This document shows, piece after piece, positions 28,317 through 62,538 of a stretch of 64,000 nt of DNA. The notes beneath the pieces were generated by a model. It saw only the letters and a program-made list of their open reading frames with translations. It was not told the DNA's origin and did no database searches. Positions within the stretch are counted from its first letter, which is position 1. Every line of letters begins with the position of its first letter. The position numbers were made by a program, and so were the translations under genes. Origin of the DNA: Fragilariopsis cylindrus CCMP1102 (lineage: Eukaryota; Bacillariophyta; Bacillariophyceae; Bacillariales; Bacillariaceae); the NCBI GenBank assembly GCA_900095095.1, contig FMBT01000377.1, forward strand, positions 62,001 through 126,000. Reading direction: 5' to 3'.

Positions 28317-31300
28317 ATGGAATATAGCGATGATACAAATACATCGATACATTTAAATGACCGCCAACAACAACATCCCACTAATTCTAATCATATGATT
28401 AATAGTAGTGGTAACAGTAATATCTTTGATAGTATAGTACAAACACAAACAGCCAACAATCAATGATGAGTAGTAGTAGAATGTCGCAATCTTATGGTGG
28501 TCTTGATAATTCTTCGTCTTTTTTATTGCGTCAAGGTATACTCCCCCCTTCAACATCACAACTTCATCGGTAAGATTTAATTTTGTTGTGCTCCTACCTT
28601 GTTCTTTTTATTATTGCTTTGGTATACTAACTAACTAAGATTATTATAATAAAAAAGAAATACGTTTCCACGACTACCCATCACTCACTCGCATCGACCA
28701 TGTTTTCTATTTCAAATCGACTATATTTCCCTAATCTTCCATATCAAAATAAAATAGAACACAGAGCATACTGCTACGATCCCAGTTGTATCTAGTATAA
28801 CGTACAGTGGATACTTGTACAAACGATCGAACAAACCTCATTTGAATCCAGATGAAATATTGCAGCTACAGCCAGCCAATTATTACATCCTCATAACCTT
28901 TATAATGATGACACAACGACTATGGTAGCGGTAACACCCTCCCCAGCATCAGCGAGCAATAATAACATAATAATAATAAACAACAACAACAACAAGAAGA
29001 AGAAGAATCACAACAACACGCAGCAAATAAATAATCAATATGAACAACAGAAAAAGAATAATGACAAGCAGCAGCAGGAGCAGCAGAAAAATAATCCTAT
29101 TCAGCAAGGACTAAAAGCAGCAGCTTCATTCTTTGGGATTGAATTAAAAGACGACAACAACCAAAAATACAACAATAATCATCATGATATGATTATGATT
29201 ACGACGATAAAATCTAATAATACAAACAGTAATTCAAATCATAATAATAATAGAAAGTCAACAACAACAGACGACAACAACCATAACCATAGCAACGATG
29301 CGTTACTACTGTCTACAACCATTAATCCGAAAATAAAGTCACGACGAGTTCGCCTATTAAGTTCGCATCATCATCATCAACAACAATAATAATAATAATA
29401 ATATAATAGTGGTTTTTACGTTCACCATCACGTCAAGATTTGAATCGATCCTCCTTTCATGAAGCTATGCATCGAAGACATACAGCACCATCAATGTTAT
29501 CAGAAAGTCCATCATCACAGTCCGAACAATTCGATTCATCTAATTCATTCGGAGAAGACTTATCATCCAAACATAGTAGTAGTAGTAGTAACTATATGAT
29601 TCCACAAGATTTTTATGATCCCGAAGATGGACATTTATGGAGGGCTAAATATTGTGTTTTAGAGGATGGGATACTCTATTTTTATCGACACGCAAATGAT
29701 GGAGATAGTGTAGAAGCTGCATCGGAACGTAAACAAAATACTAGTAGTATGCTGGTAGACGACAACGCATATCACAGTAACATAACAGTAACAATAACAA
29801 TAACAATAACAACGGCGATTCTTATAACAATGATAATGTCATCAACAACAATCGATCTTCTACTACTGGCAATAATAAAGAGGACAAGCGGCGAATATGT
29901 TGTCAGCTCGACGAATTAGTTCCGCTCAAGATTTAAGTAAATCACCAATGATACGACCGGGTATGCTTCATCCTCACACATTGAATTCTAGTGGTGTATC
30001 ATCCGCGGATCTTGATACACCATGTATATGGGAAAAAAGAGTATTTATGGACTGTGTGGGTGGTGTTCGAACAGCTGAACAACAATTTGGTAACAATTCC
30101 TTTGAATTACAAGCCATAGACGATCACGATTACGATCAGAATCTTATCGCTACTCTTGTTTTGAAAGCACAAAATTCAATAGAAATGAAGGAATGGATAT
30201 TTCAATTTCATCGTTCATTGGCTTCCTTTATGCGTAGCATAATTGATGGTGTTCGATCGACGTCAACTAGTGGACCATTCTTAGATATACACCATCCAAG
30301 TACTATGTTATCGTCATCACATTCCAGTCGTCATTTGTCATCCTCCAACTTGATTGCGAGAGACCGAATCGGATCAATTCCTCAAAGTTCTTCGGAAAAA
30401 AATCTACATCAAGTTTATTCTACCAGTCCTTCCCTACAACAGAATTTATCTCATGGCCATGGTAGAACTACACTCAAACGACGAATGGATATAAAAAGAA
30501 CATCATCAGATTGTGATGCATCATTATCACCGACAACGGATACGGGTGACAACTCAGATTATTCACATCATCCATTTGCTTTTCGGGAACCGTCACCAAC
30601 AATATGATACTTTTATCACCCGAATCTCTTAGTCCACCTTCCGGTTCTTAATTCCTCCTCCAGTTAAATTGGATCGAGCTGAGTTGTCAGAGTTGGCCGA
30701 CATATTACCGCGGGTTGATGCAGACACAGCATATCGGCCAAAACCTGTCACTGGCAAGTATATCCCCCCACACCAACGAGGCAGCAACAATGCTGCACCA
30801 TCCAAGTCAAAATATGTTCCACCGCATCATCGACAAAACCACCCATTTACGCCCATTACTCCTCCTATAGACACAGTGAAACTAGACCAACTAGATATTG
30901 TTGACGAATCGGCCACTGGTTTTATAAGGGGAGGCTGTGCCGATCCACAACTGATACATGGGTCTATTCTAGACCAAGTATATATTCCAAAAAGGGCATC
31001 TCGATTGGAAAAGACACGCGCTGAAGCCCATGGAAGTTATGGAGGTAGTTTTTCATCAGACTTATCATACGCGAAGAAAAAGAGCAGCAAGCTGCGTTGG
31101 GAGGTTGGTGCGATTTCGGAATGCGGTATCCGCGAATCCCAGGAAGATTCGTACGTACTAAATAATGACCTGTTGAAAACCTTTGAATCGGGACCGTATG
31201 GTTCGTTGCCTCAAAGTTATTGGAAACAGGAGGAAACCGATCATAGTCTTGGATTATTTGCCATATTTGATGGTCACTGCGGCAATCAGGGAGCTCGGTT

Positions 31301-32423
31301 TGCAGTGGAACGACTTGGACGGTTTATTCACGATGAACTGCTGTTAGTCGAAAGCAATGATAGCCACCACCAACAAAGTGATGCTTCCTCATTGCATCCT
31401 TCTAATATCGAATCGATTCTGAGTGAGGCTTTTGTGAAAATGGACAACGAATTTTGCAATCTATGTCAACTAGACGGCAGGGAATGGGAGTCAGGGGCGT
31501 GTGCCACCGTCGCCATAGTGGCAAATGAGAATCTCGTAGTTGCAAGTCTTGGTGATTGTCGGGGTATATTGTGTCGCTTTGTCGATGATGCAACATCTTA
31601 CGAATCGGATAATCTTTGGTGCCAACTTGATACTGAACTAGATGACATAGGTCAGTTGTCATCAGAGAGTAACAAGAATGAAGCTTTGCATCGTTGTTTT
31701 TGGAGGGAGGTTACTACTGTTCACACCCCATCAGCGGAGAAAGAATCAGAACGAATCAAAAATGCAAATGGTTGGATAACAACTGAAACAGAGATCCCCA
31801 TAGGACAACTACGACGAATGGACTTTCAGGATGAAGACGTGATTGATATTTTAAAACGATGTTTACATTACCCCTCTGGTAATGGAGGAACAAAGTCATC
31901 CACCGATAGTGAGCGATCTGTTAAAGAATGCAAAGCCGCTCCACAACGAATTATACACATTTCCAGAGTATGTGGTGAGCTCGCTGTCAGTAGAGCCCTA
32001 GGAGATAGAGACTTCAAAGCTTCTTTCAATTCCATGTCGCCGTCGACGCAAAAATGTAGTGATGATCATGAAACCACTACCACCACCACCACCGAAGAAG
32101 AAGAGTGGGAGTCTCCTTTGTTTCTTCCGTACCCAGATAATCATAATCATCGATTTAGAGGTGACCTTGTGACAAACTCTCCTGATTTTCATAAAGTTCA
32201 ATTGGGAACCGATGGTGTGTTAAACGAATTTCTATTACTAGCCTGCGATGGATTGTGGGACGTCATGGATGCGGATGATGCTGTTCGAATCGTTCGAGAT
32301 CTACTCTACCATAAGAAGTTTACCGCCAAAAAAGCAGCAGCTCGTCTTGCAGAATTGGCGATTCATCTTGGATCCTCTGATAACATCACGGTGATTGTCG
32401 TACGTCTTATTTCTGAGAATTAG
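28317..32423 (+). CDS. PH-domain / PP2C protein phosphatase fusion
   Basis: The ATG at 28,317 opens exon 1 (to 28,569); a GT-AG intron (28,570-28,807) leads into the first PH strand GYLYKRSNKPHLNP. The PH domain is split by long Asn/Gln/Ser-rich inserts: LWRAKYCVLEDGILYFYRH is encoded near 29,635-29,695 and WEKRVFMDC...SFELQAI...MKEWIFQFHRSL near 30,030-30,225. The uninterrupted last frame (to 32,423) is a full PP2C Ser/Thr phosphatase: RESQEDSY, FAIFDGHCG (usually DGHGG), SGACATVAI, GDCRG (usually GDSRA), CGELAVSRALGDRDF, LLACDGLWDV and SSDNITVIVV. These supply the metal-binding acids (D of ED, DGH, DGLWD, DN), so the phosphatase should be active. The two parts join through SPPSGSLIPPPVKLDRAEL. 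Between about 28,463 and 30,650 the frame shifts repeatedly, each time as one missing base would do. PH should recruit the phosphatase to membrane phosphoinositides (inference). Confidence 0.7.
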
Positions 32424-37242: not shown

Positions 37243-40200
37243 TTAAAAGTTACTAGAGTATTCTTCCTGCATTTGTTCAAGAGAACCGTTGTGTTGCTTC
37301 TGTAAGATATGGATCATTTGATCGATAGAATGTGCGTACCAATTTCTTGTATCCACTTTCCCTGCATGACAGAACTGTTTATTCAACCAAAAAGCGGCCT
37401 CCATTTGTAAGGCCTCCTCGATAGACTCAAACAGCAGCCCGTCGCTATCGCTCTCTACTAGTTTTGGACACAAAACATTGGGTGGAACACATGCCTTTGC
37501 ATCTGCAATAGTGGAAGGACGCTCACTATTTTTCTTGATCCACTTAGGCAGTTTGTTTTTTCCTCGTCCAACAACGGACATGTCACCAATAGAGTCGTTC
37601 ACGAAACGGGCCTTGTATAAAGTGTCATCAGCATTCTTTTTATACCATGAAACATCCCAATTTTCTGCATTCAATGATACTCTAAACGAACTTTTATTGT
37701 TGCTCCTTATGTTCAGAACTTGTTCTTCAAACATTTGGAAGACCAAAGCGAGAATATTGGTAGAGGGAAATGCAGGCATCGTCGCCCCGTTATTTAAAGT
37801 AGTCGAGAATAACAAATTCGACGGATTGATGAGTTGACGATCAAAATGACGGATCGCGTGGTGTTCTAGTGTCTTGCCTTTGGGAGAGTTAATTTCGGTT
37901 TTGCGATTTTTGGAACGACCAGGAGGGCTTTTTCCAGCTGGCGTAGATTTTTTGGAACGACCAGGAGTACTTTTTCTAGCTGGCGTAGAGTCCTTCTTTG
38001 GCGTAGAATATTTATTTGTTCCATCCGAAACTGAAGTACGACGCGGCCCATTATATTCCGATTTCGTACTAGTTTTACGTTCCATACGCCACACAGATAG
38101 ATTCTCCATAGTCAGCGATTCTTCCATGATCGACTCCCAAGGCGTTAAGTCCCCATCAACACCATCGAACAACGCGCATAGTTGAATAATCCTCTCGGGG
38201 AAACACGCCAGTTTTTCTCCCATAGACAGGGAATTCTGATGAAACACAGTGGCAAGGCGAAGGCGATCCAACACCCAAGCATCGGCGGATGCATTTCCAC
38301 TCACACATGTTTGATCACCTCCACGAGTTTTAATCATCTTAACCTTATCCACTAACCAAGAATATGATCTATGAACTTTCTTCTCGGTACCAACTTCCTC
38401 GCTTTGCGTTGACCACAACAGAGGGGTGTCGGGCTCTAAACCAAAGGACAACTGCGATAGGAGAATAAATAGCGGATTGGGGGGAAGTAAGGTTAGGCCA
38501 TCCACTCTTAGACCACCTTGTTGCAACTCCAAAGAGTTAGCTGCCACTGCGTAAAGGTCGTTAGTGGTGTGAATGGCCGTAGATGGTACCGATTCATCAA
38601 CGTACACAAGGTTAGATGTGCCCAAACGTCTCCAACGTTTTGAAACATCTATTTCGTCTTGGGCCATTGAAAAGTTCATAGTATCCTCAGGATCGTCGCT
38701 ACCATTTTTAGGGATTCGCAGCATATACTTTCCCTTCCGCTGACTGGATGCTAGCATAGCCAATATTCTTGCACCTTCAGGAACATCTAAAAACAGAGGT
38801 TGATGCAATCCACGGCTTTCTGGTAGCTGAGACACTGTTGGTCTTTTTAATACAATGGATTGAGCAGAGTTTTTGACGTTCTCTGAAACGCTCAAAGGCT
38901 TTCTACCCAACAAGTCTTCCAGATCTGGTTTCGAAACCCTGCGACATTCACCTATTGTGGTCACAAAAAAAGGCTGAACCGAATTCGATTTCTTTTTCTT
39001 TTTGCTGCTACTTCTTTGAGTGAAAAAATGCCATATCATTTTCGACTTTAAGTTGCATTGATATAGTTCGTGAATCATGGAAGAGCAGATTCTTCCAAAC
39101 TCATTGCCGACTTCTTCTTGTATTAAATCAATTCGTTTAAATTGTTTTTGTCTAGCGAAATCACCCTGAGGGTTGGCATTGACTGCCCACACACCACATG
39201 CCCTTTCTTGAAGTCCACGGCGCTTTTTGTTAGTGTAATCGTATACGAAAATCTCCTTTTTTGAGGAACAATATGTTACTGTTTCAAGAAATGTCCCCAT
39301 TCCATTTGACATCTTGGTTTCCTCGAGGTATAGAAAAACTCCTTCATCAGAGTAGCATAGTATTGCTTCTATACCCTTCTCACTTGCATAAGATATTAAA
39401 CGATCTTCAAAGTCAAAATCGTTGACAAAATGAGGCAGATAGAAAATCCCATCCACTTCAAACACTCCTGTTTGATTTACCTCGTTACTTTCTATAATAT
39501 TGTATGGATGTCTCTCTGACTGGAGTATGCGATCGAGATGGGTATCCTTGAGGGTTGCAGACGATTTTCCTTTGATTGAAAGCGTAACAGAATCATCATG
39601 CGAAAGTTTCAATTTTGAAGGAGCGCACTCGATTATTGAATCAGAGAAAACCCAAACCATCAATAGCCTCAGAAAAAGCAACTTTTCACGCGGCATATCC
39701 CTTGGTGGGAGTTGCACTTGAAGTTTATCCTCATTCACTCCAAGGAAGTCGGCAACTCTCTTTCGGATGCTATTTCGAGAAGATACCGCTTGTTTCCATC
39801 GTGTCGCTGCAATTTTATTCTTGTAGCACCACGTATTTTTATTAGATGCAATGACATAATCCCAAAGAGCATTCATCAAAGCGAGAGGCTCTGAATATAG
39901 ACCAGCATCAAACTTGCATTTTGCCGCATAAGTTTGTGAAGCATTTACATTGAACTCGTCGGGAGTAAGCCACATGGGACTTGTAATTTGGAAAGGCGTT
40001 TTCGTTAATGACATCATCGCAGCCATTTCAATTGCCTCAGCAGCAACACCAAACTGAATTCCTAACCCTATGAAAGCTCCAAGTGACAAGTCAACACCCA
40101 GTGAAGATACAAAACTTCCAAGAGAAGTAATGTCTGCCTTATCATCTGCTTCGGTAATAAAACCCCAATGATGCAAACTTTGGAAGGACCTAGATATTGT

Positions 40201-43200
40201 GTCAAGTGGAGGTGGTTCAAGGCAATCCATAAATGCAGGTATCACTTCTTCATGTAAAATCTGCTTTAGGAGCAGTATCACGCTATCTAACGGAATACGA
40301 AGCATTTCACCAGGCTCAAACTCTTCCATGTAGTTTTCATATGCTCGTCGAGTATAGAGGCGGTAGACGTTTCCTGGGCGCACTCTCCCAGTTCGACCCG
40401 CCCTTTGAGTTGCGCTCGCTCGAGAGATCCAAGCTGGGGTCAACATTTGACGGTGAGTGGCTTGATTGTAAATAATTTGTTTGCAAAGTCCAAGACAAAT
40501 CACATGGTCTACCGCGGGGAGAGTGACCGAACTCTCGGCTGCATTCGTGGCAATAATCACCTTCACTTCATCCTCTTCGGGATCGTTAAAGGCATTCATC
40601 TGTTCCTCAAATGGAATATCACCATGTATGGGAAAGCAAGTGTACCGAATACCAGTCATATGAAAGCTTTCGATGCACTCAGTAATAGATACAATTTCAC
40701 CCATCCCTGGTACAAAAATCAGTACAGACGAACCGGGCTCTCCAACTATCGTTGCCAGACGAGCTGTCAAAGCAAATCTATTTGAAATTTCGGCACTTTT
40801 AGGTGCTGTTACGCATTTCTTTGACTCGATCTCTTTCCGAATTGCTGATACGGCCTTAGTTTCTTGACTGGGTAATCCAAACTGTGACAGGTCTTCGATA
40901 AAGTATTCCGTGATAGGAAATGTACGTACACCCACATGGATTGGCTCATTGATAACACTGAAATAATCCCGATACATCTTTGTAGCGAGTGTCGCTGACA
41001 TTAATACCAACCGAATTGTCTTGTTGGTTTGGAGCAATCTCCTACTCAATAAACACAAGAGGTCAGTGTCCACTGACCGCTCATGAACTTCGTCTATCAC
41101 TAAATGAGTCATTTCATTGAATTTTTCTGGATGGTTTGCTAGTAGACGACAAGATAGCCAGTAGTTACGAAGGACCTTGCGTCTCTTTGCTCTCGTATTC
41201 CTTCCATCCACCGCCCATTCTAAGGGAAAACTTGTCCTTGAGGTCTGGTTCGCAAGAACGCACCCTTTCAACCAAGGCTTTAGCAGCAATCCGTCGTGGC
41301 TGTGATATGAAGAATTTGACCTTTCGCAAGCTTCCGTCCGGAGGTGGCGATTTTAGAAGCATAACGGGTACACGGGAAGACTTCCCGCATCTGAACAGCG
41401 TACGAAAAAAAGTGTGCAATCGCAATTTTTGAGTTTTCCCATAATTATACTTACTGCTTGAATGGATACAAACAATCAAACAATCAAACAAACAAACGTA
41501 ATAGAAGATAATCGCAATCACAAACACGCATGCACGTACCCTGTTTCTCCATGAATAATTGTTACACGATTGTTCCGAATGTCGTCAAGAATTTCCGTTT
41601 CATGGTCATCAATAGGTAATCTTCTAACTGCTTCCACTTTCTCAGGTGTCCTTTCTTCTGCTGGACTCTTCCGTGTATCCACTTTTTCTGTTACATTTTC
41701 TCGTAACGAAGCGATGGCGGAGAAGAAATCAATGCGGTTCAAAAGTGCATCCGGTGGCGTTGCCTTAATCAATAAGGAATTTGATGATGTTCTATAAAAG
41801 CGGCTGATACATCTTTCGATAAAGGAGGCAAGTTCCATATCTTGATACGTCGGCCTATATAGCAAAGTCGGTAAGTTTTTCATCGGCATACTGGAAATTT
41901 TGTAAGCATGCAATTCATCCGATGTAAACAAAGAATTAGAATCTGCATCTGTCTGATCTAAATTTGTCTCTAGATACCGTATCAATCCATCTCGTACAGA
42001 CATATCTTGAGGCAAAAGTCTTGCTTCGGTAGAGTTCTTCATCGGGATATTATTTTTATTCGTGATTGGTTGGCTGGTTTCTAGGGGAAATTCTTCCAGG
42101 TTATAAAAGTTATACAAGCTTCGAACAAACTTTACTGCAGCTTTCCCCTCTTCGTTCTTGGCGATTACTTCAAAGTCTTCATGACACTGTAGATAAAAAA
42201 CTATAGATTGGACATTGTCCAGTTCGATCTCGTCGGGTAAATCTAATGAAAGTGAGTCGACATAATCATTACCCATCAATAAAGCTAAGTCCACCAGTCT
42301 CGAATCATTATCAAATCCAAGCAAGTTAGCAAGATCAGATCTTCTAGCAATAAATGCATGTATTCCCGATGTTTGAATGGATATTTGATTCAAAGGAATA
42401 TAATTGATATCTTTGTAAAAGAAAAAATCTGAATCAAGACCGCATATGAATGTATGCTCTTTTCCCCTTGCCTCTAACGCCAATTCTAAATCAGCTTCTT
42501 CGGTACATTCGACCATGTCAACAATAGGATTTTGTACATCCTCCTGTAGAGCATGACGCACGCACGTTAGAACAATTTCGAAAATGGAAAATCATCTTTC
42601 AATTCGCAGATATGTTTGCTCTTTCTATTGTTTTTTTTGAACTTTTTTATTGATCCATGTTTGCAAAACATTTCTAGGTTAGACTCTTGTTCCTTTCGAA
42701 ATGCTCTTCGTTTAAGGTCTGTTCCAGCTTTGTGACGCCGCATTGTTCCATCCCAAAATACTTTGATTTGTTTAATACTATCGTCAGAATTTTTCAATTC
42801 ACTAACAAATTCTTTCGTCACTTCACGTAACAAACGAAGGGGTAGCACACAAGGTAACGCCTTCACAATTAATTGTTGATCACTCATTACAGTACGACTG
42901 AGAGGACAACAGTCACTGCTGCTGCTGCTGTTGTTGTTGTGTGTGCCATTAGTTGACGTATCAAGTGAACGCAAATATCGAGCGTAGGCAATAGAATGCA
43001 AGTAAAATGCTAAACCATTTCCGTCGATCAAAAAGGTTGAATGCTGTGGTATCTTTTCGAGCGAAGGAGAATCATCTTTACCCAAGAATGCATCGGATGC
43101 ATTCACTTTCTTCCAGATACTTGTAGAGCATCCGCAATTGGAAGTTCCTCGATCATTCGTGTCATCTTCACTACTTGATGATGATGATGATGCTAACCAA

Positions 43201-43241
43201 CCGACATCACGCAGCAAATGTCGAATTCCACGTACACCCAT
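37243..43241 (-). CDS. Asteroid/FEN-type nuclease domain fused to DEAH-box helicase
   Basis: Starts at ATG 43,241 (MGVRGIRHLL, the N-terminal signature of XPG/FEN/Asteroid proteins) and ends at 37,243; about 1,950 residues. The Asteroid-like nuclease part contains FLIDGNGLAFYL, CTEEADLELALEA, GLDSDFFFY and LLMGNDYVD, which supply the acidic active-site residues of this superfamily. A GT-AG intron (41,391-41,539) falls inside Walker A: GETG|CGKSSRVP. Helicase motifs follow: QPRRIAA, DEVHERS (II), SATL (III), VLIFVPGMGEI, ATNAAESSVTLP (V) and QRAGRTGRVRPG (VI), then the ratchet/HA2-like region and a long C-terminus with STPxRKSTPGRSKK repeats (about 37,880-38,020). The frame changes near 42,565, 41,173 and 41,149; at each a single missing base would restore a known motif (SKLFLTCVRHAL; FVTTGYLVRLLANHP). 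RNA processing or decay is a reasonable guess for role. Confidence 0.82.
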
Positions 43242-46122: not shown

Positions 46123-46340
46123 TGTAAATGTATCTAGCTACCTAAGTTCACTAGACTGAAGACCTTCTATGCTATTAACGTATGTAAATAGTGTTTATTA
46201 GAAGAGTGAGCTTAGTAGCTCTCTATGATTGGCTATATCTACTCGTACGGTGTATGTGTGGTCTGACCCTGGTCGGTCATACCCCTCATATGGTCTGTCC
46301 TGGTCGGTCATTCCATAGTGACACTCGCCTTACGCCTACA
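46123..46340 (-). repeat. LTR (3' LTR of the minus-strand Copia element)
   Basis: 218 bp, identical by eye to the copy at 55,487-55,704; ends TGTA...TACA. The GGGGAAG-type polypurine tract borders it on the internal side (minus strand). Confidence 0.95.
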
Positions 46341-49300
46341 CTTCCCCACACTTACAGAATCTAGAGCATCAGAATTGTACTGTGATGCAGACTGTAATAG
46401 TGATATAAGTGGGTTAGATCTGTAAGTGGAGACGGACACATAATTGATTGTGTGTGCTTTGTCATTAGAATGATCAATATAGGTAGTATATGCCGGTTTG
46501 CGTCTTCCCATAAAGACGTCCGTGTGCTCGTAAAATTTTGTCCTCCCTGTTGGCTTGCTCAGAGAATCACTGTAATTTTCATCTGTCGATGTATCGACAA
46601 AATCAATGAACTTGTCATCTGTCCATTGTAATATAATAAAGTGTTTCATTTCTACATGTCTTGTTCTTCTTGTTGGTTGTTGTGCGTTCGCTAAACGAAC
46701 TGCTCCTTGGTTATCTGCTAGAATTGGTGTTGGTGCGTCCATAATAATACCAATTTCTTCTAAAATCCATCGTAAGTATAAAGCTGCTTTTCCAGCGTCT
46801 GCCATATTCGTGAATTCAGCTTCTGTTGAGCTTTGTGCTATTGTTGGTTGTAATCTCGTTCGATAATAAACTGCTGCTCCTGCTAACATCATAATGATAC
46901 CACCCATTGATCTTCTTTCAGTTCTGTCTGATGCCCATGTGGTGTCGCAGGATCCAGTGATTTCTAATGCATTCCATTGCTCATCGAATTTATGTAGTTG
47001 AGATGGTGCTGATATTGGTGATGGATCTGGTCGTATTGGAAGGTCCATACGAGGTTTTGGTCTCCAGTAGGTGAGTCCATCCATTCTTGTTGCCTGGAGG
47101 TATCCAAATACTTGCTTAACTGCTTCATAATGTATTTGAGCTGGGTGATGTGAGTGTTGACTCAACGTTATTACTGCTATTGATATATCCACACGACATA
47201 CTGTTAGTGCATATATTAGTTCACCGATTGTTTGTCTGTAACTAAAACCCATTCGTTTTTCTAATTCTTCTGTTCTTTAATTGATTCTGGTCCTCTACTT
47301 GACTGTATATCTGCTTGGTACTTCGAATCACTTTTCATTGGTGTTGGTGGTGATCTAATTTTCAAATTACTCCATCCATGATGTGATACAATCTTATCGA
47401 TATATGTTGCACAATGGACATGGTTGTAGTATCTTGTTTGCTCCACATTAACTCCATTGAATTTTCTAATTGTACCTAATTGATTAAGTGGATTAGTCAT
47501 ACGATCTTGTATTTGTTTTCCTATTCGGTCGCACTGTGATGAATCTTTGTTAGCCACTAGAAAGTCGTCGACTTGACGTAGGATGAGTGTCAAGTTGTCT
47601 TGGTCATCTCTTTTGTAATAGAGGCAGGGTTCATGTACTGTTGCTGTAAAGCCTAATTCATCAATGATCATCTTGGAGATGTATTTGTCCCATAGTCGCG
47701 GTGATTCCGGGTGTCCCTGTAGTGCTTTTCTAACTGGTATCACATATCCATCTGGTATCGGCTCCTTTCCAAGGTGTTCCTCCCACCACTGTTTAAACTG
47801 GGCGTCTGGTCGCATAAAGAATGGAGATGTTGGTGCTGGTGCTTCTGCAAACGCATTGCCTACATCGTATCCTTTACAGATTAGATTCATTGCTGCTGAT
47901 ATTGCCCATGTCAATCGGTGGACTGGCTGTTCCACACACGCTGCATATGTTTCTGCAAGTGTGATTGCTGCTCCATATCGTGGTCCTCCATTGCATGTGC
48001 CTCTTGATTTTCGTATCGTATCTCCGGTTAGTGGATCTTCCTTGTTGACATAAGACCATACCCATGGCAGTACTGTCATCCATTGATCCGATTTCACTGG
48101 TTCTCCAAACATGCCTACTTTCTCGTAACGATCCAGTTGTTTCCATTCTGATTTAAGGAAATCATCCCATTCTGGAGTGAGCTTGAGTTTGTTACGTTTC
48201 ATAATGTTTATTCTTACTTTTTCTCGAATTGAATCACCTGAATCGATTTGTTGTGGCCATTTTGTCTTGTCTATCCAAATGTCCTCTTCATTGTTGATGC
48301 TGTTGAGATGATGGGCGATTACGTTGAGTTGATCCGATTGTAATGTTGGTACTCCTTCTCCACTCATTGCAAAGCCTACTAATGATCCAAATTCTAATTT
48401 GATTGATGATTGATTGTTAATTCTTGCTTGGTGGATGGCGTTGATGATATCTTGCTCTGTCTTAATTGGTTGATTATTAACTGTTGATATTATTGTCCCC
48501 TTAATCTTCTCTTCCATGATCGAATATGACGGTGGGTTGATGTTCCAACTTGAAACTCCACTAATTCCATTGCTTGTTTCATATCCGGGTGTGTTGCTAC
48601 TATCATTCCTAATGTTGGATGATACGATTTTTCGTTTAATGGAATTGTATGTGATGTGGTGTGTACATATTTGTTTGTTGATATATCTAATGTTGCAAGT
48701 TCATGTTGTAAATCTCCTATTTCTGGTCGTCGAAATGCTCTTTTTAGTTTGTTAACCCTCCTATCCGTCCATCGTTGTTGTCTCCTGTTCATTGTTGCTG
48801 CTGCTGCTACTGTGTATGGTAATGGTGAATTCAGTAGGCTGCTTTCCAATATCTCTGTTGCTGATGGTGATAGTTTATCTTTTAAGTGTAGATCTACTCT
48901 TTCAGGGTTCATGTAAGTAGTATGGTCGGCGCTTCCGGTAAATACCTCCATAAGATGTTTTGATGCTGGCGATCGATTCGTTGGTCTGTCTCCATACTGT
49001 ATCTCGTCTTTTGAATCATGCTTAGCTGTTTTGATTGCTCCTGTGTTGATATCCCAGTACTTGATGTTGTGCATAGTATTTGATATCCAAGGAAGATACC
49101 ATCATACGACCATGGGTTCAATGTCGTTGGTCGGCTACCTGGCTTCTTCGCTGTTATTTTAGCTCCAAAGGTGATGAGGCTGTCCAGTGCTGGTATTTGG
49201 CCTGAAAATGCTTGCAGTGGTGTCATTTTGATCTTACTGTGATACGTTCGGTTGTACAGCCATGTTGCATGTAGTAGTGCATCCGCCCAAAACTCTGTTC

Positions 49301-52300
49301 CTAGTCTTGCTGAGTACATCATACATCGCATTCGTTCCTTCAACGTCCTGTGTGGTCTTTCCACTATTCCATTTTGTGAAGATGCGTCCGCTGCTGTTGA
49401 ATTGACTTCATATCCATGAGAGTTACATAGCTTTGTGAGCTCATGTGATTTGGATAATTCACCTCCTCCATCTGTAGTGATCGTCGCTCCAACTTGGTCT
49501 GGTAGCAGGTCTCCAAAGAAGTCGATATCGTCATCCGTTGGTTGAATGACGTACTGTTGTGCTGTCACTGCTTCGTCGAATGCTCTTGACTTGGCTAAAT
49601 ATCCAGTACCAGACGTTGTTATAATTGCTTTTGAAGGGTTTGTTGTTCTAATACCATGACGTTTGAGGAATTTGTTGATATATTCAATTGGTGGATCTTT
49701 ATTCTTGATTGGATGAGTCCATAACTTTCTTGATGATACGTCGATGATGGTAAGGAATCCGATGTATCCGTCTCGACTCTTTGTGATGATTGGTCTTGCT
49801 TCACTATTCTTTCCTGCGTCTATTTCCAGATTTGATGGTCCACTTACGAAGGCTAGATCCATATGATACGCTTGTCCCGGTATGAAGTTGTCCTTATCTG
49901 TTGTTTTCTTGCCTCCCTTCTTGACCATCTTGCCTCTTTCACAGAATGGACATTTGAAAAATGGTGTATTGGTTGGTAGATCAGGGATTCCTTCTACACA
50001 TTTTCTTGTCTCATTCAATGTTCTTGTTGAGCAATGACCCATCCGTTGATGCCATAGTTCCAGTTCCTTCATCTTCTGAGTGTATAATTGGTGTGGTGTA
50101 TCCATTGTCTTTAGCTTGACGTCAGTGAATATTGGGTGTGCTTCTTCCTTCATCTGTTCGAAGTGATGGGCTCCAATGTCAGTAGCCCAAGATTCATTGA
50201 TTTGTTGATCAATTATTATTCTATCTTCCTTTGCTTGCATATTGTCATTTCTCTCCATCTGTAGGTCCCGAATTCGATCCGATCTTCGTGTTACTGCTCG
50301 TATGATGTGTTTGTTGTTCAATGAGTGTGGTAGTAGGACCTGATTAGATGTCAACCATTCGCCATTGTTGGTTCTTTTCATTTGAATCGATTCCATTTCA
50401 TTTTGATTGTAATCTAAAAATCCTATTTTACCAGTATTATTACTAGTGCCAAGGTGATAGAACGCGTAATATTTCAATTTATGAGTGAAGTGATAGTTGT
50501 CTGGGGATAGTACAGTACCACTCGATAGTGGTGTATATAACACTGGCCACTCCATAATAGAGCCTTGATCAGACAAAATTTTAATCACGCCTTCACCCAA
50601 CGCTTGGAGAGTTGTACTTGTCTCATCGTCGGAGAAGACTCCAACGTCTTGTGGGATTGCGAATTCTTCATAGTTGTGTATGATATCAATCGTGTCAGTT
50701 GCTGAGCAGTTAGCTCCAGTATCGCCTTGTGCGTTGATTTCCGTGGTATATTGTGCTTGTTCACTCTTACTGAATATTTCATTCCCATCTTCATTGTTTG
50801 TATTGACTCTCTTATTTAGCTTTTTGATTCTAAATTTTACTCGTACTGATTTTCGATTTGAGGTTGACTGTAGTTTAACTGCATTGATATTATATGGTTG
50901 TCCGTGTGTTGAACCTAGGCTGTCGGCCGGCGTGTACGCGGGAGTGAGGTCTGCTGAAGTGATTGAAAAATTTGATTTTGCTTTAGTCGCGCTGACCATG
51001 CTTTGATATGCCTTGCACGTGTTGTATCGATATTCAATCGCGTTGATGATATAAGCTCCTGTCTCATGCATTGTTCTCCCTCCATATGTATTGTATTCGC
51101 GGATGATGTCCGTGAAGTCTTTTACAGTTCGTGTACTCTTAGTGTTAATTATGAGACGTGTATCAATTTTCTGTTCGTTTCCCGATTCATGATTGTTAAG
51201 TATTTGATGTGTATTACTGTTCTGTTTGTTTTCGTTCCCACGTGTTTTTGTTAAGGAATCTTCAATCGTGTTTGTTGGTTCTTGTCCGCATTGGGGATTC
51301 GTCGATACTTTACAAACATGTGTCTTCATCTCCGACTCGGAATTTGGTAATTTTTCAATCGTATTCGTTGGAGTAGTCTTAACTGATTTTGTTGATTCCC
51401 GTGATTGCGTCTCCAGATTTTCCACGCTCTGAATTTTCTGTTTTTCCTGTAGAATTCTACGGGCTGTTGGTAGGATTGTTGGTTCTTTTTCCAGATATTC
51501 ATTTTTCTTTTCCAGATATTCACTTTTCATTTCCATATTATTGAATTCATTACAAGTTATCTTTTCGTTACAAAGATTATCTTTACACTCTGTTTCAGAT
51601 AATAATTGATTAAATCGATTGACAATGGCCATCCTTTCTTTATTCAACTGGACGATGGTATCATTTGCTGCTTGTTGTTCCTGTAAATCCTTCGTATGGG
51701 CTTCAACAAAGCAGTAGTTATGATTGTTATGGTTGATGTGGTGTGGTACGTCATTTGATATCGTTTGTCGTTGTTGTTGTTTTGATAGTTTGTTGATGAT
51801 TATATTTCCTATTATTGATTTGTCTGATGGTGACGATGGTATGTGTGGTGTTTTCTTACGTGCTGGCTGGACCGATCTCTCGGGACAGCATGCTTGTCAG
51901 TTATCTTCTTCATCGTCCTTGATCCATTCCTCACACTCTTCTCTTATTGTTTCATCTGTTGCGGAGGTTGGGAGTGATCGCATGACCCTGTTAATCATTA
52001 CCGGACGGTTTGACTTGTAGTACTTATCTGCATTTATGTCGTAAGTTTCCTTATTCGTTGTTGCAAATTTTGTTGCATGTGATATTTGTGCCCCGATTCT
52101 GCATATCTGATCACCTATACTATGTCCTGCCATCTTACAACATGCGCATTGTTTCTTGTTACGTAGGGAGTATCTTTGGCTACCTTCCTTTGAGTATCCG
52201 TTCTCCTTTGATTTTTCCATCGAATGCGTTGATTGACAAGGTGTTGATCTTGTTGTTGGATGTGTTGGGGTAATCTGCAAATAGGTCTGCCAGACCTGTT

Positions 52301-55300
52301 GTCTTCCAAGTATTGGGTAGAGGTTTCTTTGGATGTGCGAGGATCCATTGATTGAAGTCTCCACTTAATTTCGTTGCAATTGATGTATTGTACGATTGAA
52401 GTGCTTGGTGGAGCATTTCTTGTGACTGTTGAACTTCCGAGTATGTGGTGTTATGCCTCATTTCATGCTCTGCTACCGATGCCTGTAGTTCTACTACATA
52501 TGCACTTGGGGTCATTGTTTTGCTCCAGGTTGGTCCCCATCCTTGTGTGGTGGGTTTCATGAACGCACATGACCTTCTCATGATCGCGTACAGTGCTCCA
52601 TACCCATTTCGTTCTTCGTGATATGGACTGATTATGTCAAGCATCACTGTATTTGTGATTGGTATGATAACTTTCAGTCGTCTCATGATTGCATGGCTGA
52701 TAGTAGCGATGGTAGTATCCGTTTCATTGTGCATTGGTGGTATGCATGATCCTTTTGGTGATAGGTATTTTAGTTCGGTGAGTGGGTATGTTTCTATGAG
52801 ACAGTCATCATACATCTCGTTGTACAGTTGTTTTGCTTGTTCCATCGTCACCATTGTCTTTACTGGTATACAATGTTTGTGCATTGGCATGGTGCCAAAC
52901 CTTGTTATCGATTTCGAGATATGTCCCAATCTCTTGGTCTCTGCTAGTGCTGCTTCCTCTGCCTGTCGGGCCTTTCGTGTTGCTTGTTCTTCCTGAAATC
53001 TTTTGTTTGCTTTTGAGAATAGGCCAGTATATTCTTCTGTTTCTCCTGTACTAATATCATCCTCACCCATTTTATCGTTGTACGATTTTTCTTCCTCTGT
53101 AGTTGGGTCCGTTTTAGGTGGTCCTCCTCCTCGTGGTCGAAATTCCTTGTCGTCGTTGGTTTGTGTCCAATCCGTTGCCTTATCTACGTTGGTATGCATC
53201 CATTCCGTCGCGATTCGGTCTACTTCTCTTTCAATGTTGCCGGTGGTGATGTCTCCTACGTTGTTATTCATCCATTTCGTGGCAATTCCATCGATTTCTC
53301 TTTCAAGCTTGTCGGTGATGTCTCCTATGTCTGTGACTGAGGATGCTACTCCTCTGATATAATGGTCGATTGTATCATTGTCCTTGAAGAAATCTATCGA
53401 GAATTTCATCAGTGCGTCAGACATTTCCTGTGGGAATGTTTTGATGTAGGCCCGGATTTGAGTTTTGATAATCTGTCGAAAATCTGGTCCATCGATTATG
53501 GTTGTTAATACAGCTTTTGATTGGTCTTCTATCATTTGCAGTGTAATAACCAAGTCATCCGTTGCTTTCTTGGTGAAGGTCGCTAGTTCTGTCTTGGTTG
53601 CAATGGATTGTAATCGATTTTCCACGATGATATTTTTCCGGCTTTCCTTATTGATTGATCGTGCCATATCACTCAGTCCTAGGATGGAGCTATCACTCGC
53701 TGATTTGATTCGTACTATGGCCTCATTCAGTGATGTTTTGATTCTCAATGGATCTAGCTGAGATAGGGTCCATTGGAGATCTTGTGCTAGTGCATCCTTG
53801 TGGTTTTGGAGATCTTGTACTAGTGCGTCCGTGTGGTCGGTTAACTTCTTTGCCAGTTTCTTTGCACCCGAACGCATGGCTGTCGCCTCTGCTGCTGTTA
53901 ATTGCCTGGATGTATTGATGAGTTGCATGGCTACTTGTGCTGCTTCCAGGTGGTCTGCAAGGACTGTTGTGGCCGTATCTGCTTCTGCAATTGTTGTGGT
54001 TGCTTCCTCAATCCGACTTGTGACTTCATCAATCTTTGAGGTGAGTTCCAACAGTTTTGATTCTGCTTCCGTAAACATTTGTCTTGTTATCTTCAATTGC
54101 TTACTTGCACTTTCTTCCAGCTGTTGCATACGGGTGTTCCTCTTGTCCATATCTTTGTATCTCACTTCCATCTTTCTGTTCATCATCTCTTCCATCCTCT
54201 TATCGATCATTTCTTCTAAGTCTATGCTATTCGATCCAAGTCTACTGCTTTCGTTATCTGTTCCTAGTACGCTGGTGGTGTGGTTGCTGTCGTTGTCATT
54301 GAGCACCTCACTTTTGGTTTCCTCTTGTTCCTGTAAGTATACCTCTTCTTGCTGTTCTAGTCTGTTGATTGTATCATCCAGTTCTTCCTTTTCATCATCG
54401 TCTAACTCCTCTTGTTCTTCCTTTACGTCATCATCTACCTCTTCTTCATTCTCTACTTCTGATTCCTCTGCGTCCGAATCGAATAGTGATGATATGTCTT
54501 GTACCCGTTGTGTTGGTAGTTTCTGTGGTGAGTTTGAGTTTGCTAGGCGCTGCTTTGCTTTCTGGCGAGAGGAGCTCCTTTCATCTCTTTCTCTTGCTCT
54601 CTTTTCTCTCTGCCTGGCACTCTTCACTGTCCATGCACTTCCGGTGTCACTGGAGTCAAGTTCGGTTTCCTCATCTAAATCCTTCAGTTGTATCTTTGGT
54701 GGTGATTCAATGATTCGATGTTCGTTTCCTCTTCTCGCATACGGTGGCTCTGAGGAAGGTGGTGATTTAACGATTCGGATTGCTTTTCCTACTCTCTCAT
54801 ACGGTGGCTCTGATTGAAATAGGGTTGCATGAAGTGGTGGTGCATACTGGTATCTGCTTCCTGTCGTCCATGTCGATGGGGTCCATGCATGTTGTGTACT
54901 AAACATCTGCTTTATTAAGTTTTCGATGGCAACATACTTTAGGTCTACCTCCAGTGCTTCATCATGTAGTGTAACGAGGTGTGCATGGTGGTCCGATTCT
55001 TCATACCGTGAAAATGGCATGAAAGGTTTTATATTGTAAGCGCCATCCTTGTACGGATTGCTTCCGTCCAGAGGAAAGACTAACTTTAGTGCTTCGATCT
55101 CCTCCTCTCTGATTCCTTCATAAGGGATGAAACCTTTAGGTATTGTCCTACCACCCCTCGGTGGTGACATTGGCATTGTGTCCAATGTACTTGTCTGCAT
55201 CTTACCCGACTTTCTTGAGATCTTGGTCTTTTTAGTCATGGTACAAGTGTTGTAGAAATTTGTTGTTGTGCTTTTATTTATTATTTAAGCGATTTTTGCA

Positions 55301-60505: not shown

Positions 60506-62068
60506 CTATTCCAAACACGGATCTATCTTCCATTCTTCAACCATACTTACGAACATGTCGATATTGGATACAACCACACGACCGCGATTCGATGGTCGCA
60601 ACAAATAGTCAATAATCCATTTGGAAGCATTACGGGAGGTTTCTAATAGTATTTCTCTTAGTGGCTCGTACCGTTCGAGACAAATATCTAATATCTGACC
60701 TTTCCTATCTTCAGGATAATCGTAAACCGTTTTGGGTCTCTCACCATTCCGATGTGGGGCCCTTGGAAGATCACCAACGTCCAGTCCCAAAAAAGTCTCG
60801 AGGTCGGTTACCACATCATCTGCCATAGTCTGATTCTTCCGATTGTCGAACTGTCCGATTTCAATCAAAAATAGTTTCGCTTTGTCAACATCACCATCAC
60901 CATCACTATCAACACTATCATCACCTTTCGAAGAAAAGTCATGAATCGGCATAGTGTGGTGGTCTAATAGGGCCAACTCTTCTGGAGTGTCCATCGGAGT
61001 TAATCCCAATCGAGACAGGTACATGTGATAATTTGATTCACCCGTACAAAAATTAATATCGACATCACTCACACCCACACAGCGTTGATGGTCTGCTCTT
61101 GTTGTCACCTTCTTCGTCACTACTTTTTTGGCGTTCAATTTGGACACTCTAGAAGCATCTTTCGTCGTCGATAATAAGAACGATCGAAAGTCGTCTTCAT
61201 TGTCGAAAGTCTTTTTCACTTGCTCTGTGGCTACTGTGGAGACTATAGCTGAAGTCTCCCTTCTCTCATCATTATTATTGTCATTATCATTATCATTATC
61301 CTCGGGACAAAGCTCCCCACAGACACCGATAAAGTTCTCAACAGTTGGAATCAAGGAGGGGTGTTTTCTGAGCTTGTAATTGTACAAACTTTCGAATTGC
61401 AGTACTGGGTGTCTCAAGGTAATGATAATGCCGACGTCTGGAAATAATGTCTCAAGGTTCCGTAACGATGTTTCGTGACCGAGTTCGAATGGGGCCTTGT
61501 ATCCAACCACCATTATTTCTTTTTGTCCACTATTGCTATCATCATCATCATCATCATCTACATTTGTATCACTATAATTCGCTTCGTCGACGATCATTGA
61601 TGATGACTTCTTTGTCACATTATCAAATTCGGCCACGAATTCAGAATATTTATCACTTTGCAGGAAGTGTGTTTCGTGGTGAGGAATAAAAAGTCTTTCC
61701 GATGGATATAATATTTTATTCTGTAAATAAGTAGTTCCGCATTTTGGAAATCCCCCTACCACGAAATCAATCAAGTGTGGATCAATACTTTCTTGTACAT
61801 CGATCGGTACTTCGCCAACCTCTCTAGGTAGTATGGATGATAGGTCGCGAGTAGTAGATTTTGATTTTGATTTTGGCCACGTTCTTGATCGTATTTTTGT
61901 TGTGTTACTGTTACTGTTACTGTTACCGAAGTTCGACGATGATGATGGGACATCATCGTTTCTGTTCCCCCCACCCGTAATCAGATTCAGAGTGGTCGAA
62001 ACCACTGCTGCGAATGTTAAAAACGCGATACTAATTATTGCTACTTCTTGCTTTGATATCGTCATCAT
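60506..62068 (-). CDS. Type II membrane sulfotransferase
   Basis: A single-exon frame of 520 residues from ATG 62,068 (a longer frame opens at a GTG). Residues ~8-30 form a signal-anchor TM, then a Ser/Asn-rich stem, then the catalytic domain in the Golgi lumen. The PAPS 5'-phosphosulfate loop is VVGGFPKCGTTYL (107-115 core) and the 3'-phosphate-binding block is IITLRHPVLQFESLYNY, both with the usual Lys/Arg/His/Ser pattern. The C-terminal part (FLGLDVGDLPRAPHRNG...ICLERYEPLREILLE) matches carbohydrate sulfotransferases. Substrate is probably a wall or secreted polysaccharide (inferred). Asp/Asn-rich inserts (about 61,270-61,300 and 61,535-61,570) interrupt the domain at loops. No frame disruption. 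Confidence 0.88.
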   Translation of the reverse strand: MMTISKQEVAIISIAFLTFAAVVSTTLNLITGGGNRNDDVPSSSSNFGNSNSNSNTTKIRSRTWPKSKSKSTTRDLSSILPREVGEVPIDVQESIDPHLIDFVVGGFPKCGTTYLQNKILYPSERLFIPHHETHFLQSDKYSEFVAEFDNVTKKSSSMIVDEANYSDTNVDDDDDDDSNSGQKEIMVVGYKAPFELGHETSLRNLETLFPDVGIIITLRHPVLQFESLYNYKLRKHPSLIPTVENFIGVCGELCPEDNDNDNDNNNDERRETSAIVSTVATEQVKKTFDNEDDFRSFLLSTTKDASRVSKLNAKKVVTKKVTTRADHQRCVGVSDVDINFCTGESNYHMYLSRLGLTPMDTPEELALLDHHTMPIHDFSSKGDDSVDSDGDGDVDKAKLFLIEIGQFDNRKNQTMADDVVTDLETFLGLDVGDLPRAPHRNGERPKTVYDYPEDRKGQILDICLERYEPLREILLETSRNASKWIIDYLLRPSNRGRVVVSNIDMFVSMVEEWKIDPCLE

Positions 62069-62538
62069 ATTACAGTATGGAAGATGTACAAGTACAACAA
62101 TGTAAAACTGAAGCTGTGAATAATGAAATGGAAAAAAGAATGTCAAGCAAATATCAATACGAGGTGTAAATAACTCACACACGGAGTGAATTTTTTCTCT
62201 TTTTCCTCCTCGTTGTGGCCAAAAAAGTGTTAATGAGATGCCTGCTTTCGCGCAAAACGATCTCTACGTTGTAAGCATGGATATTTACAAAGAAAAATGA
62301 GTCGTCAACGGCAAACCAATCGGAAGATGACGTTATTACGACTAAATGCCATAAACAACAAAAAACAGCTTTTTAGTCCAGCATAACCATAAAATTAATA
62401 ATACAGTACTACGCGCGTCACAAACTGGGAATTCCCAGTTTAATTTTTTTCAAAATAATAGCGCAAATCTACTCACAAAAATAAAGCCAAAACAAAGAAA
62501 ATACAAATGAATTACCATGAAATGATGAAATAATGTAG
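62069..62538. other. Intergenic
   Basis: Upstream region of the sulfotransferase; contains an AAACTGGGAATTCCCAGTTT palindrome near 62,420-62,441. Confidence 0.4.

What the first reader, a model, noticed from the sequence alone, without database searches (positions are those of the whole stretch)
37243..43241. Asteroid/FEN-like nuclease fused in frame to a DEAH-box helicase
One transcription unit carries XPG/FEN-superfamily motifs (MGVRG start, EEADLELA, LDSDFFFY, GNDYVD) followed, across an intron placed inside Walker A (GETG|CGKSS), by a full DEAH helicase. The intron splitting the P-loop and the absence of any other start between the domains make a real fusion more likely than two adjacent genes. 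I am not aware of a described protein with this architecture. A nuclease and RNA helicase in one chain suggests RNA processing, quality control or defence against foreign RNA.
Basis: partly seen in the sequence, partly recalled or inferred. Interest (0 to 1): 0.8.

Follow-up and report, generated by a model that had tools for sequence, protein, structure and literature searches.

The report
Nuclease-like domain fused to RNA helicase
In an apparently eukaryotic genome, one gene joins a nuclease-type domain to an RNA-helicase motor in a single reading frame, a pairing I did not find described, but this copy has three reading-frame breaks and no related copies could be checked.

Summary
On the minus strand, 43241 to 37243, an XPG/FEN/Asteroid-like N-terminus is followed by a DEAH/RHA-type helicase and a long unassigned C-terminus. 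The decisive fact is one 357-codon open frame (42591-41521). It carries the XPG_I_2 match (Pfam E 4.4e-5, 0.6 bits below the curated cut-off) and the start of the helicase up to GETG, with 235 open codons between GNDYVD and GETG. The 149-nt GT-AG intron inside Walker A keeps the frame exactly. A fusion is supported at DNA level.

Three things qualify it. First, the claim of no start codon between the domains is wrong: five in-frame ATGs lie there. Second, the frame breaks near 42575 and twice between about 41175 and 41139, and the splice joins tested lose conserved motifs. A glutathione transferase in the same window is broken inside a continuous conserved stretch, which favours assembly errors. 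Third, no orthologue could be tested in the collections at hand.

Best reading: a helicase-driven, structure-selective nuclease, probably acting on RNA or RNA-DNA hybrids; a new combination of known parts. Interest 0.45.

The parts
42567..43241 (-). ORF1: start codon and N-terminal half of the XPG/FEN-like (PIN-like) domain: MGVRG, LIDGN, FWDG; has Ser- and Asn-rich stretches
   Evidence: no Pfam hit of its own; coding score 0.121 in frame
42567..42591 (-). frame break between ORF1 and ORF2 (the two open frames overlap here; no tested intron spares FWDG and EEAD)
41540..42591 (-). ORF2: XPG_I_2 part (EEADLELA 42501-42478, LDSDFFFY 42438-42415, GNDYVD 42273-42256), 212-codon linker (42255-41620), helicase start LPIDDHETEIL 41619-41587 and GETG
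   Evidence: Pfam XPG_I_2 E 4.4e-5, 23.6 bits against cut-off 24.2; residues 313-351 align to Prp2 (E 0.41) and 298-352 to HrpA (E 0.0096), both weak
41391..41539 (-). 149-nt GT-AG intron inside Walker A (GETG|CGKS)
41176..41390 (-). helicase exon with the rest of Walker A (CGKSS) and the motif Ia region (SQPRRIAAKALVERV)
41139..41175 (-). two frame changes around motif Ib (FVTTGYLV). A 37-nt GT-AG stretch here would restore frame but delete motif Ib
   Evidence: alignment through the stretch, read with X at the breaks
37243..41142 (-). rest of the helicase (DEVHERS 41094-41074, SAT 40998-40990, TNAAESSVTLP 40548-40516, QRAGRTGR 40407-40384) and long unassigned C-terminus to the stop
   Evidence: Helicase_C, PDB DEAH helicases, HrpB/HrpA models below their cut-offs; the last 829 residues have no significant Pfam, PDB or PHROG match

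Best explanation
A eukaryotic gene encoding one long polypeptide: an N-terminal XPG/FEN-superfamily (Asteroid/Mkt1-like) PIN nuclease domain, a linker of about 210 residues, a DEAH/RHA-type helicase closest to the RNA helicase A/DHX29/Spindle-E/DHX36 class, and a long C-terminal region. Shown here: the order of the parts, one reading frame shared across the junction, the intron in Walker A, and the acidic residues expected of an active FEN-type site. Inferred: the helicase moves along RNA (or the RNA of an RNA-DNA hybrid), unwinds or pulls structured strands, and presents the freed single strand or flap to the nuclease, which cuts it in a metal-dependent way, so that the motor lends substrate choice and ATP dependence to the cut. 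The three frame breaks are most likely errors in this assembly.
For: One 357-codon open frame holds XPG_I_2 and the helicase's first motif; open by chance at about 1.3e-8 to 1.8e-10 for 340 codons. The linker scores as coding in frame, like its flanks. The intron splits Walker A and keeps frame exactly. The acidic motifs of a FEN-type site are present in order; a skeleton of them occurred in 6 of 20000 shuffles, but the skeleton was recalled and written with this sequence in view, so this is a rough guide. Helicase E about 2e-61 to the RNA helicase A chains. A glutathione transferase in the same window changes frame inside a stretch that aligns without a gap at the break to glutathionyl hydroquinone reductase (4uss, E 8.4e-93 with X at the break), so indels are not special to this gene. 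PIN nuclease/DEAH helicase cooperation in trans has a proposed precedent, Prp43/Pfa1 with Nob1 (PMC9196750, passages).
Against: XPG_I_2 stays 0.6 bits under its curated cut-off (1.5 under for the joined piece). No XPG_N hit and no FEN/XPG chain in the PDB searches. Pfam HA2 and OB models do not match at E up to 1. Three frame breaks in the given sequence. No orthologue in any collection searched. Both structure models are unreliable (mean pLDDT 34.0 and 42.8), so no fold supports the domains.
Confidence: 0.6

Rival explanations
1. A decaying gene (pseudogene): the fusion existed, but the breaks near 42575 and 41175-41139 are real mutations and no full protein is made.
For: Three frame changes without a conservative splice solution; copia-like ORFs (my label from the translations) begin about 3 kb upstream of the start codon. 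The broken GST in the window could also be real decay.
Against: The rest, about 1,900 codons (224 + 350 + 71 + 1299), is open and keeps coding bias in the segments scored; a strongly conserved GST is broken in the same manner.
Confidence: 0.2
2. Two adjacent genes, with the helicase starting at one of the ATGs between the domains (for example 42042 or 41838).
For: Five in-frame ATGs lie between the domains.
Against: The upstream XPG frame would then have no stop of its own; it runs 235 codons straight into GETG in the same frame.
Confidence: 0.1
3. Assembly chimera joining two loci.
For: The assembly seems indel-prone, and read coverage could not be examined.
Against: The join keeps one frame with a coding score in the linker like that of its flanks, and the window holds no N.
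Confidence: 0.05
4. A subset of the best explanation: the fusion is real, but the PIN-like domain is not a nuclease and only binds nucleic acid or partners.
For: XPG_N is not recognisable. The nearest group includes FAM120A, described as a stress-granule protein tied to miRNA factors (PMC12345631, passages); that it binds rather than cuts is my inference.
Against: LIDGN, FWDG, EEAD, DSD and GND are all kept; ASTE1 and FAM120B of the same group are reported to have nuclease activity.
Confidence: 0.25

Closest known systems
Asteroid/ASTE1-Mkt1-FAM120 group of the Rad2/XPG superfamily (Pfam XPG_I_2, PF12813)
   Same: MGVRG start (typical of the group as recalled), PIN-like acidic motifs, XPG_I_2 match just under cut-off; a PIN-like domain followed by a long C-terminal part, as described for Mkt1, ASTE1 and FAM120 (PMC12345631, passages)
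   Different: No helicase is mentioned in the passages seen; here a DEAH-type helicase follows. ASTE1 is reported to cut 3' ssDNA overhangs, recruited by shieldin (PMC12599495, passages)
DEAH/RHA helicases: RNA helicase A (DHX9)/MLE, DHX29, Spindle-E, DHX36
   Same: Helicase core, E 2.1e-61 to 1.5e-56
   Different: None of these is known to me to carry an XPG-like domain (recalled); HA2 and OB Pfam models not recognised here
Nuclease-helicase pairs or fusions: Prp43 with Nob1; Hef/XPF, Dicer, Cas3 (the last three recalled)
   Same: A motor and a nuclease act on one substrate
   Different: Nob1 and Prp43 are separate proteins; Hef, Dicer and Cas3 use other nuclease folds and non-DEAH/RHA motors (recalled)

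Membership tests
Asteroid/XPG_I_2 (PF12813) | profile score above curated cut-off 24.2 bits | tested here: inconclusive
   23.6 bits, E 4.4e-5 for the library; 22.7 bits for the joined piece
Asteroid/XPG_I_2 (PF12813) | acidic FEN-type residues in order (D, D, E.D, D.D, D; recalled) | tested here: met
   LIDGN, FWDG, EEAD, LDSD, GND in order
FEN1/XPG/EXO1 proper | XPG_N domain and similarity to solved FEN-family chains | tested here: not met
   no XPG_N at E up to 1; no PDB chain for the joined N-terminus at E up to 1; for ORF2 at E up to 10 only two Prp2 sequences
DEAH/RHA helicase | core motifs I, Ia, II, III, V, VI | tested here: met
   GETGCGKS, SQPRR, DEVHERS, SAT, TNAAESS, QRAGRTGR; PDB matches
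DEAH/RHA helicase | motif Ib region in one frame | tested here: not met
   two frame changes at 41175-41139 in the given sequence
DEAH/RHA helicase | HA2 and OB C-terminal domains | tested here: inconclusive
   no Pfam HA2 or OB model at E up to 1, but some PDB alignments run past the core, to residues 576-593 of the 692-residue query
single-chain fusion | one open frame across the junction | tested here: met
   ORF2, 357 codons
single-chain fusion | one transcript; same order in orthologues | not testable with these tools
   no RNA data; no whole genome for the window; the collections searched are phage, viral and prokaryotic by their descriptions

The most novel reading that the evidence does not exclude
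A protein in which a catalytically competent Asteroid/FEN-like nuclease is driven by a DEAH/RHA motor of the RNA helicase A/Spindle-E class in the same chain: a self-contained, ATP-dependent, structure-specific nuclease for structured RNA, R-loops or invading nucleic acid. No such architecture turned up in the searches made here.
Probability: 0.4. Interest if true: 0.65.

Novelty: new variant of a known kind. Interest (0 to 1): 0.45.

Why it matters
Gene fusions suggest that two activities work on the same substrate. If this one holds, it suggests that an Asteroid/XPG-like nuclease acts with a DEAH/RHA helicase, and it offers one purifiable protein for testing how a motor feeds a structure-selective nuclease. 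The Mkt1/ASTE1/FAM120 group is described as poorly understood (PMC12345631, passages), so a helicase-linked member would be a useful clue to its substrates.

Tried and rejected
Introns for the frame breaks: GT sites within 200 nt before ORF1's stop, joined to AG sites 25-260 nt on, gave 11 frame-keeping joins; each removes FWDG or part or all of EEAD. The 218-nt one (42761-42544) removes FWDG and about 70 further residues. A 37-nt GT-AG stretch at 41175-41139 restores frame in the helicase but deletes motif Ib, which aligns to RNA helicase A; rejected as an intron.

Control on the GST: 124 frame-keeping GT-AG joins exist over its break in the range tested, so frame alone does not exclude an intron there. 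The alignment to 4uss runs on through both sides of the break with only the X between, which speaks against one. My first reading placed that break at TTVY/RCGFAT; one search places it between IDAVN and WVYATINNGVY.

Relatives: viral contigs by peptide patterns (no match; 17: 35 matches, none a relative; 24: 3 matches, none a relative) and DNA patterns (0 matches; 27 loci, in which tblastn found one match, E 0.085); prokaryote genomes (1 locus, a Micrococcales MAG; 28% identity over the helicase core, no match to ORF2 at E 0.01; ORF1 not tried; HrpB-like is my label). Phage records gave three HrpA/HrpB matches at 25-30%. By their descriptions these collections are viral or prokaryotic, so absence says little about algal orthologues. 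PF12813 rang in 0 of 1 genome and 0 of 14 control genomes, which the answer itself says does not show absence.

Structure: single-sequence AlphaFold2 of 760 residues from the helicase exon, mean pLDDT 34.0, and of a 111-residue stretch that looked RRM-like in it, mean pLDDT 42.8. Too poor for a fold search; none was run, and the RRM idea is dropped.

Literature: ten searches, several with capped lists or aimed at other points. No listed title or abstract start named an XPG/Asteroid-DEAH fusion; one search found no paper. Passages, not the full text, were read of four papers: PMC10298989, PMC12345631, PMC12599495 and PMC9196750. The PIN superfamily classification paper (PMC5499597) is not held, so a prior description there cannot be excluded.
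Full report
What is there. The gene lies on the minus strand. ORF1 (43241-42567) starts MGVRGIRHLL and holds LIDGN and FWDG. ORF2 (open 42591-41518) holds EEADLELA, LDSDFFFY, GNDYVD, then a linker, then LPIDDHETEILDDIRNNRVTIIHGETG. A 149-nt GT-AG intron (41539-41391) follows inside Walker A. The next exon gives CGKSS and the SQPRRIAAKALVERV region, and from 41142 one long frame runs to a stop at 37243 through DEVHERS, SAT, TNAAESSVTLP and QRAGRTGR into a long tail.

Is the fusion more than chance? ORF2 alone gives XPG_I_2 at E 4.4e-5 for all of Pfam, 23.6 bits against a cut-off of 24.2, its only match at E up to 0.001. The same ORF's residues 313-351 align to Prp2 up to GETG (E 0.41), and 298-352 to HrpA (E 0.0096). 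These two are weak alone, but Walker A completed across the intron is followed by a clear helicase: DEAD E 2.6e-10 and Helicase_C E 1.3e-15, RNA helicase 8szq E 2.1e-61, RNA helicase A 2.8e-61, DHX29 1.1e-59, Spindle-E 5.8e-59, DHX36 1.5e-56. A 340-codon frame stays open by chance at about 1.3e-8 to 1.8e-10. Codon bias trained on six other ORFs of the window (3541 codons) scores ORF1 0.121, the XPG part of ORF2 0.14, the linker 0.114, the helicase start 0.164, the helicase 0.102 and the tail 0.108 per codon in frame; the other two frames of these six segments are negative, partly because they hold stop codons, and the intron scores -0.066 at best. In the finer windows, made with one training gene out of frame, one linker window (41891-41712) scored only 0.001, though still the best frame. 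I take the linker as coding and in one frame with both neighbours.

ORF2 has seven in-frame ATGs, five of them between GNDYVD and GETG, so 'no other start' fails as an argument; the shared frame replaces it. The passage from ORF1 to ORF2 near 42575 is a change of frame where both open frames overlap. Two more changes sit at 41175-41139: ESKET, FVTTGYLV and RLLANHP are each in a different frame, and with X at the breaks the stretch aligns to RNA helicase A. The splice joins tested lose one or another of these motifs.

Errors or decay? In the same window a glutathione transferase reads GST_N_2 (E 4.9e-11) in one frame and GST_C_2 (E 2.2e-11) in another. Read with X at the break it aligns to glutathionyl hydroquinone reductase 4uss with E 8.4e-93, without a gap at the break. 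That break is thus unlikely to be an intron, although 124 frame-keeping GT-AG joins exist on paper. A second, strongly conserved gene broken this way argues for assembly indels. Four other genes show their matched Pfam parts in one frame: Nramp, PP2C, the larger Timeless ORF (which covers only the later part of that model) and a WD40 protein; a fifth ORF, 60509-62263, matched nothing. Real decay of both broken genes is not excluded. I put errors ahead of pseudogene, roughly 3 to 1.

How it may work. The acidic positions of a FEN-type site are all present (positions recalled), so the N-terminal domain is likely a metal-dependent nuclease. DEAH/RHA helicases of this class move along RNA 3' to 5' and open structured RNA, R-loops or G-quadruplexes (recalled; papers in the listing tie DHX9 both to removing and to promoting R-loops). 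Joined, the motor would open or pull structured strands and present a single strand or flap to the nuclease. An analogue in trans is Prp43/Pfa1, which a review finds tempting to see as restructuring pre-rRNA for the endonuclease Nob1 (PMC9196750, passages). RNA as substrate is my preference because of the helicase class; DNA ends are possible since ASTE1 cuts 3' ssDNA overhangs (PMC12599495, passages); antiviral action is possible since silkworm Asteroid is reported to take part in resistance to a baculovirus (PMC10298989, passages). All of this is inference.

What it is called. It is described as an XPG/FEN-like PIN domain with an Asteroid-type XPG_I_2 resemblance just under the cut-off, fused to a DEAH/RHA helicase. 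It is not filed as FEN1/XPG/EXO1: no XPG_N and no PDB FEN match. The last 829 residues have no significant match: in Pfam only DUF963 at E 0.81, below its cut-off, nothing in the PDB at E up to 5 or PHROGs at E up to 0.1.

Limits. A GT-AG intron, a Timeless-family gene and copia-like ORFs (my label) indicate a eukaryote. Ten literature searches listed no such fusion by title or abstract start, but unannotated orthologues may already sit in protein databases that I could not search.

Noticed in passing
window 24062 to about 25084 (+): A conserved glutathione transferase (closest solved relative glutathionyl hydroquinone reductase 4uss) is split by a frame break between IDAVN and WVYATINNGVY.
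   Followed up: yes
window 46308-55284 (-): Copia-like retroelement (label from reading the translations; the one ORF scanned, 46311-47276, had no Pfam hit), with its ORFs in several frames.
   Followed up: no
window 29410-32423 (+): PP2C phosphatase preceded by PH-like sequence (my label), with apparent frame changes near 29,880 and 30,620; may be introns or further indels.
   Followed up: partly
window 39178-39510 (-): Within the unassigned C-terminus, a stretch with an RRM-like order of strands and helices in a very low-confidence model.
   Followed up: partly
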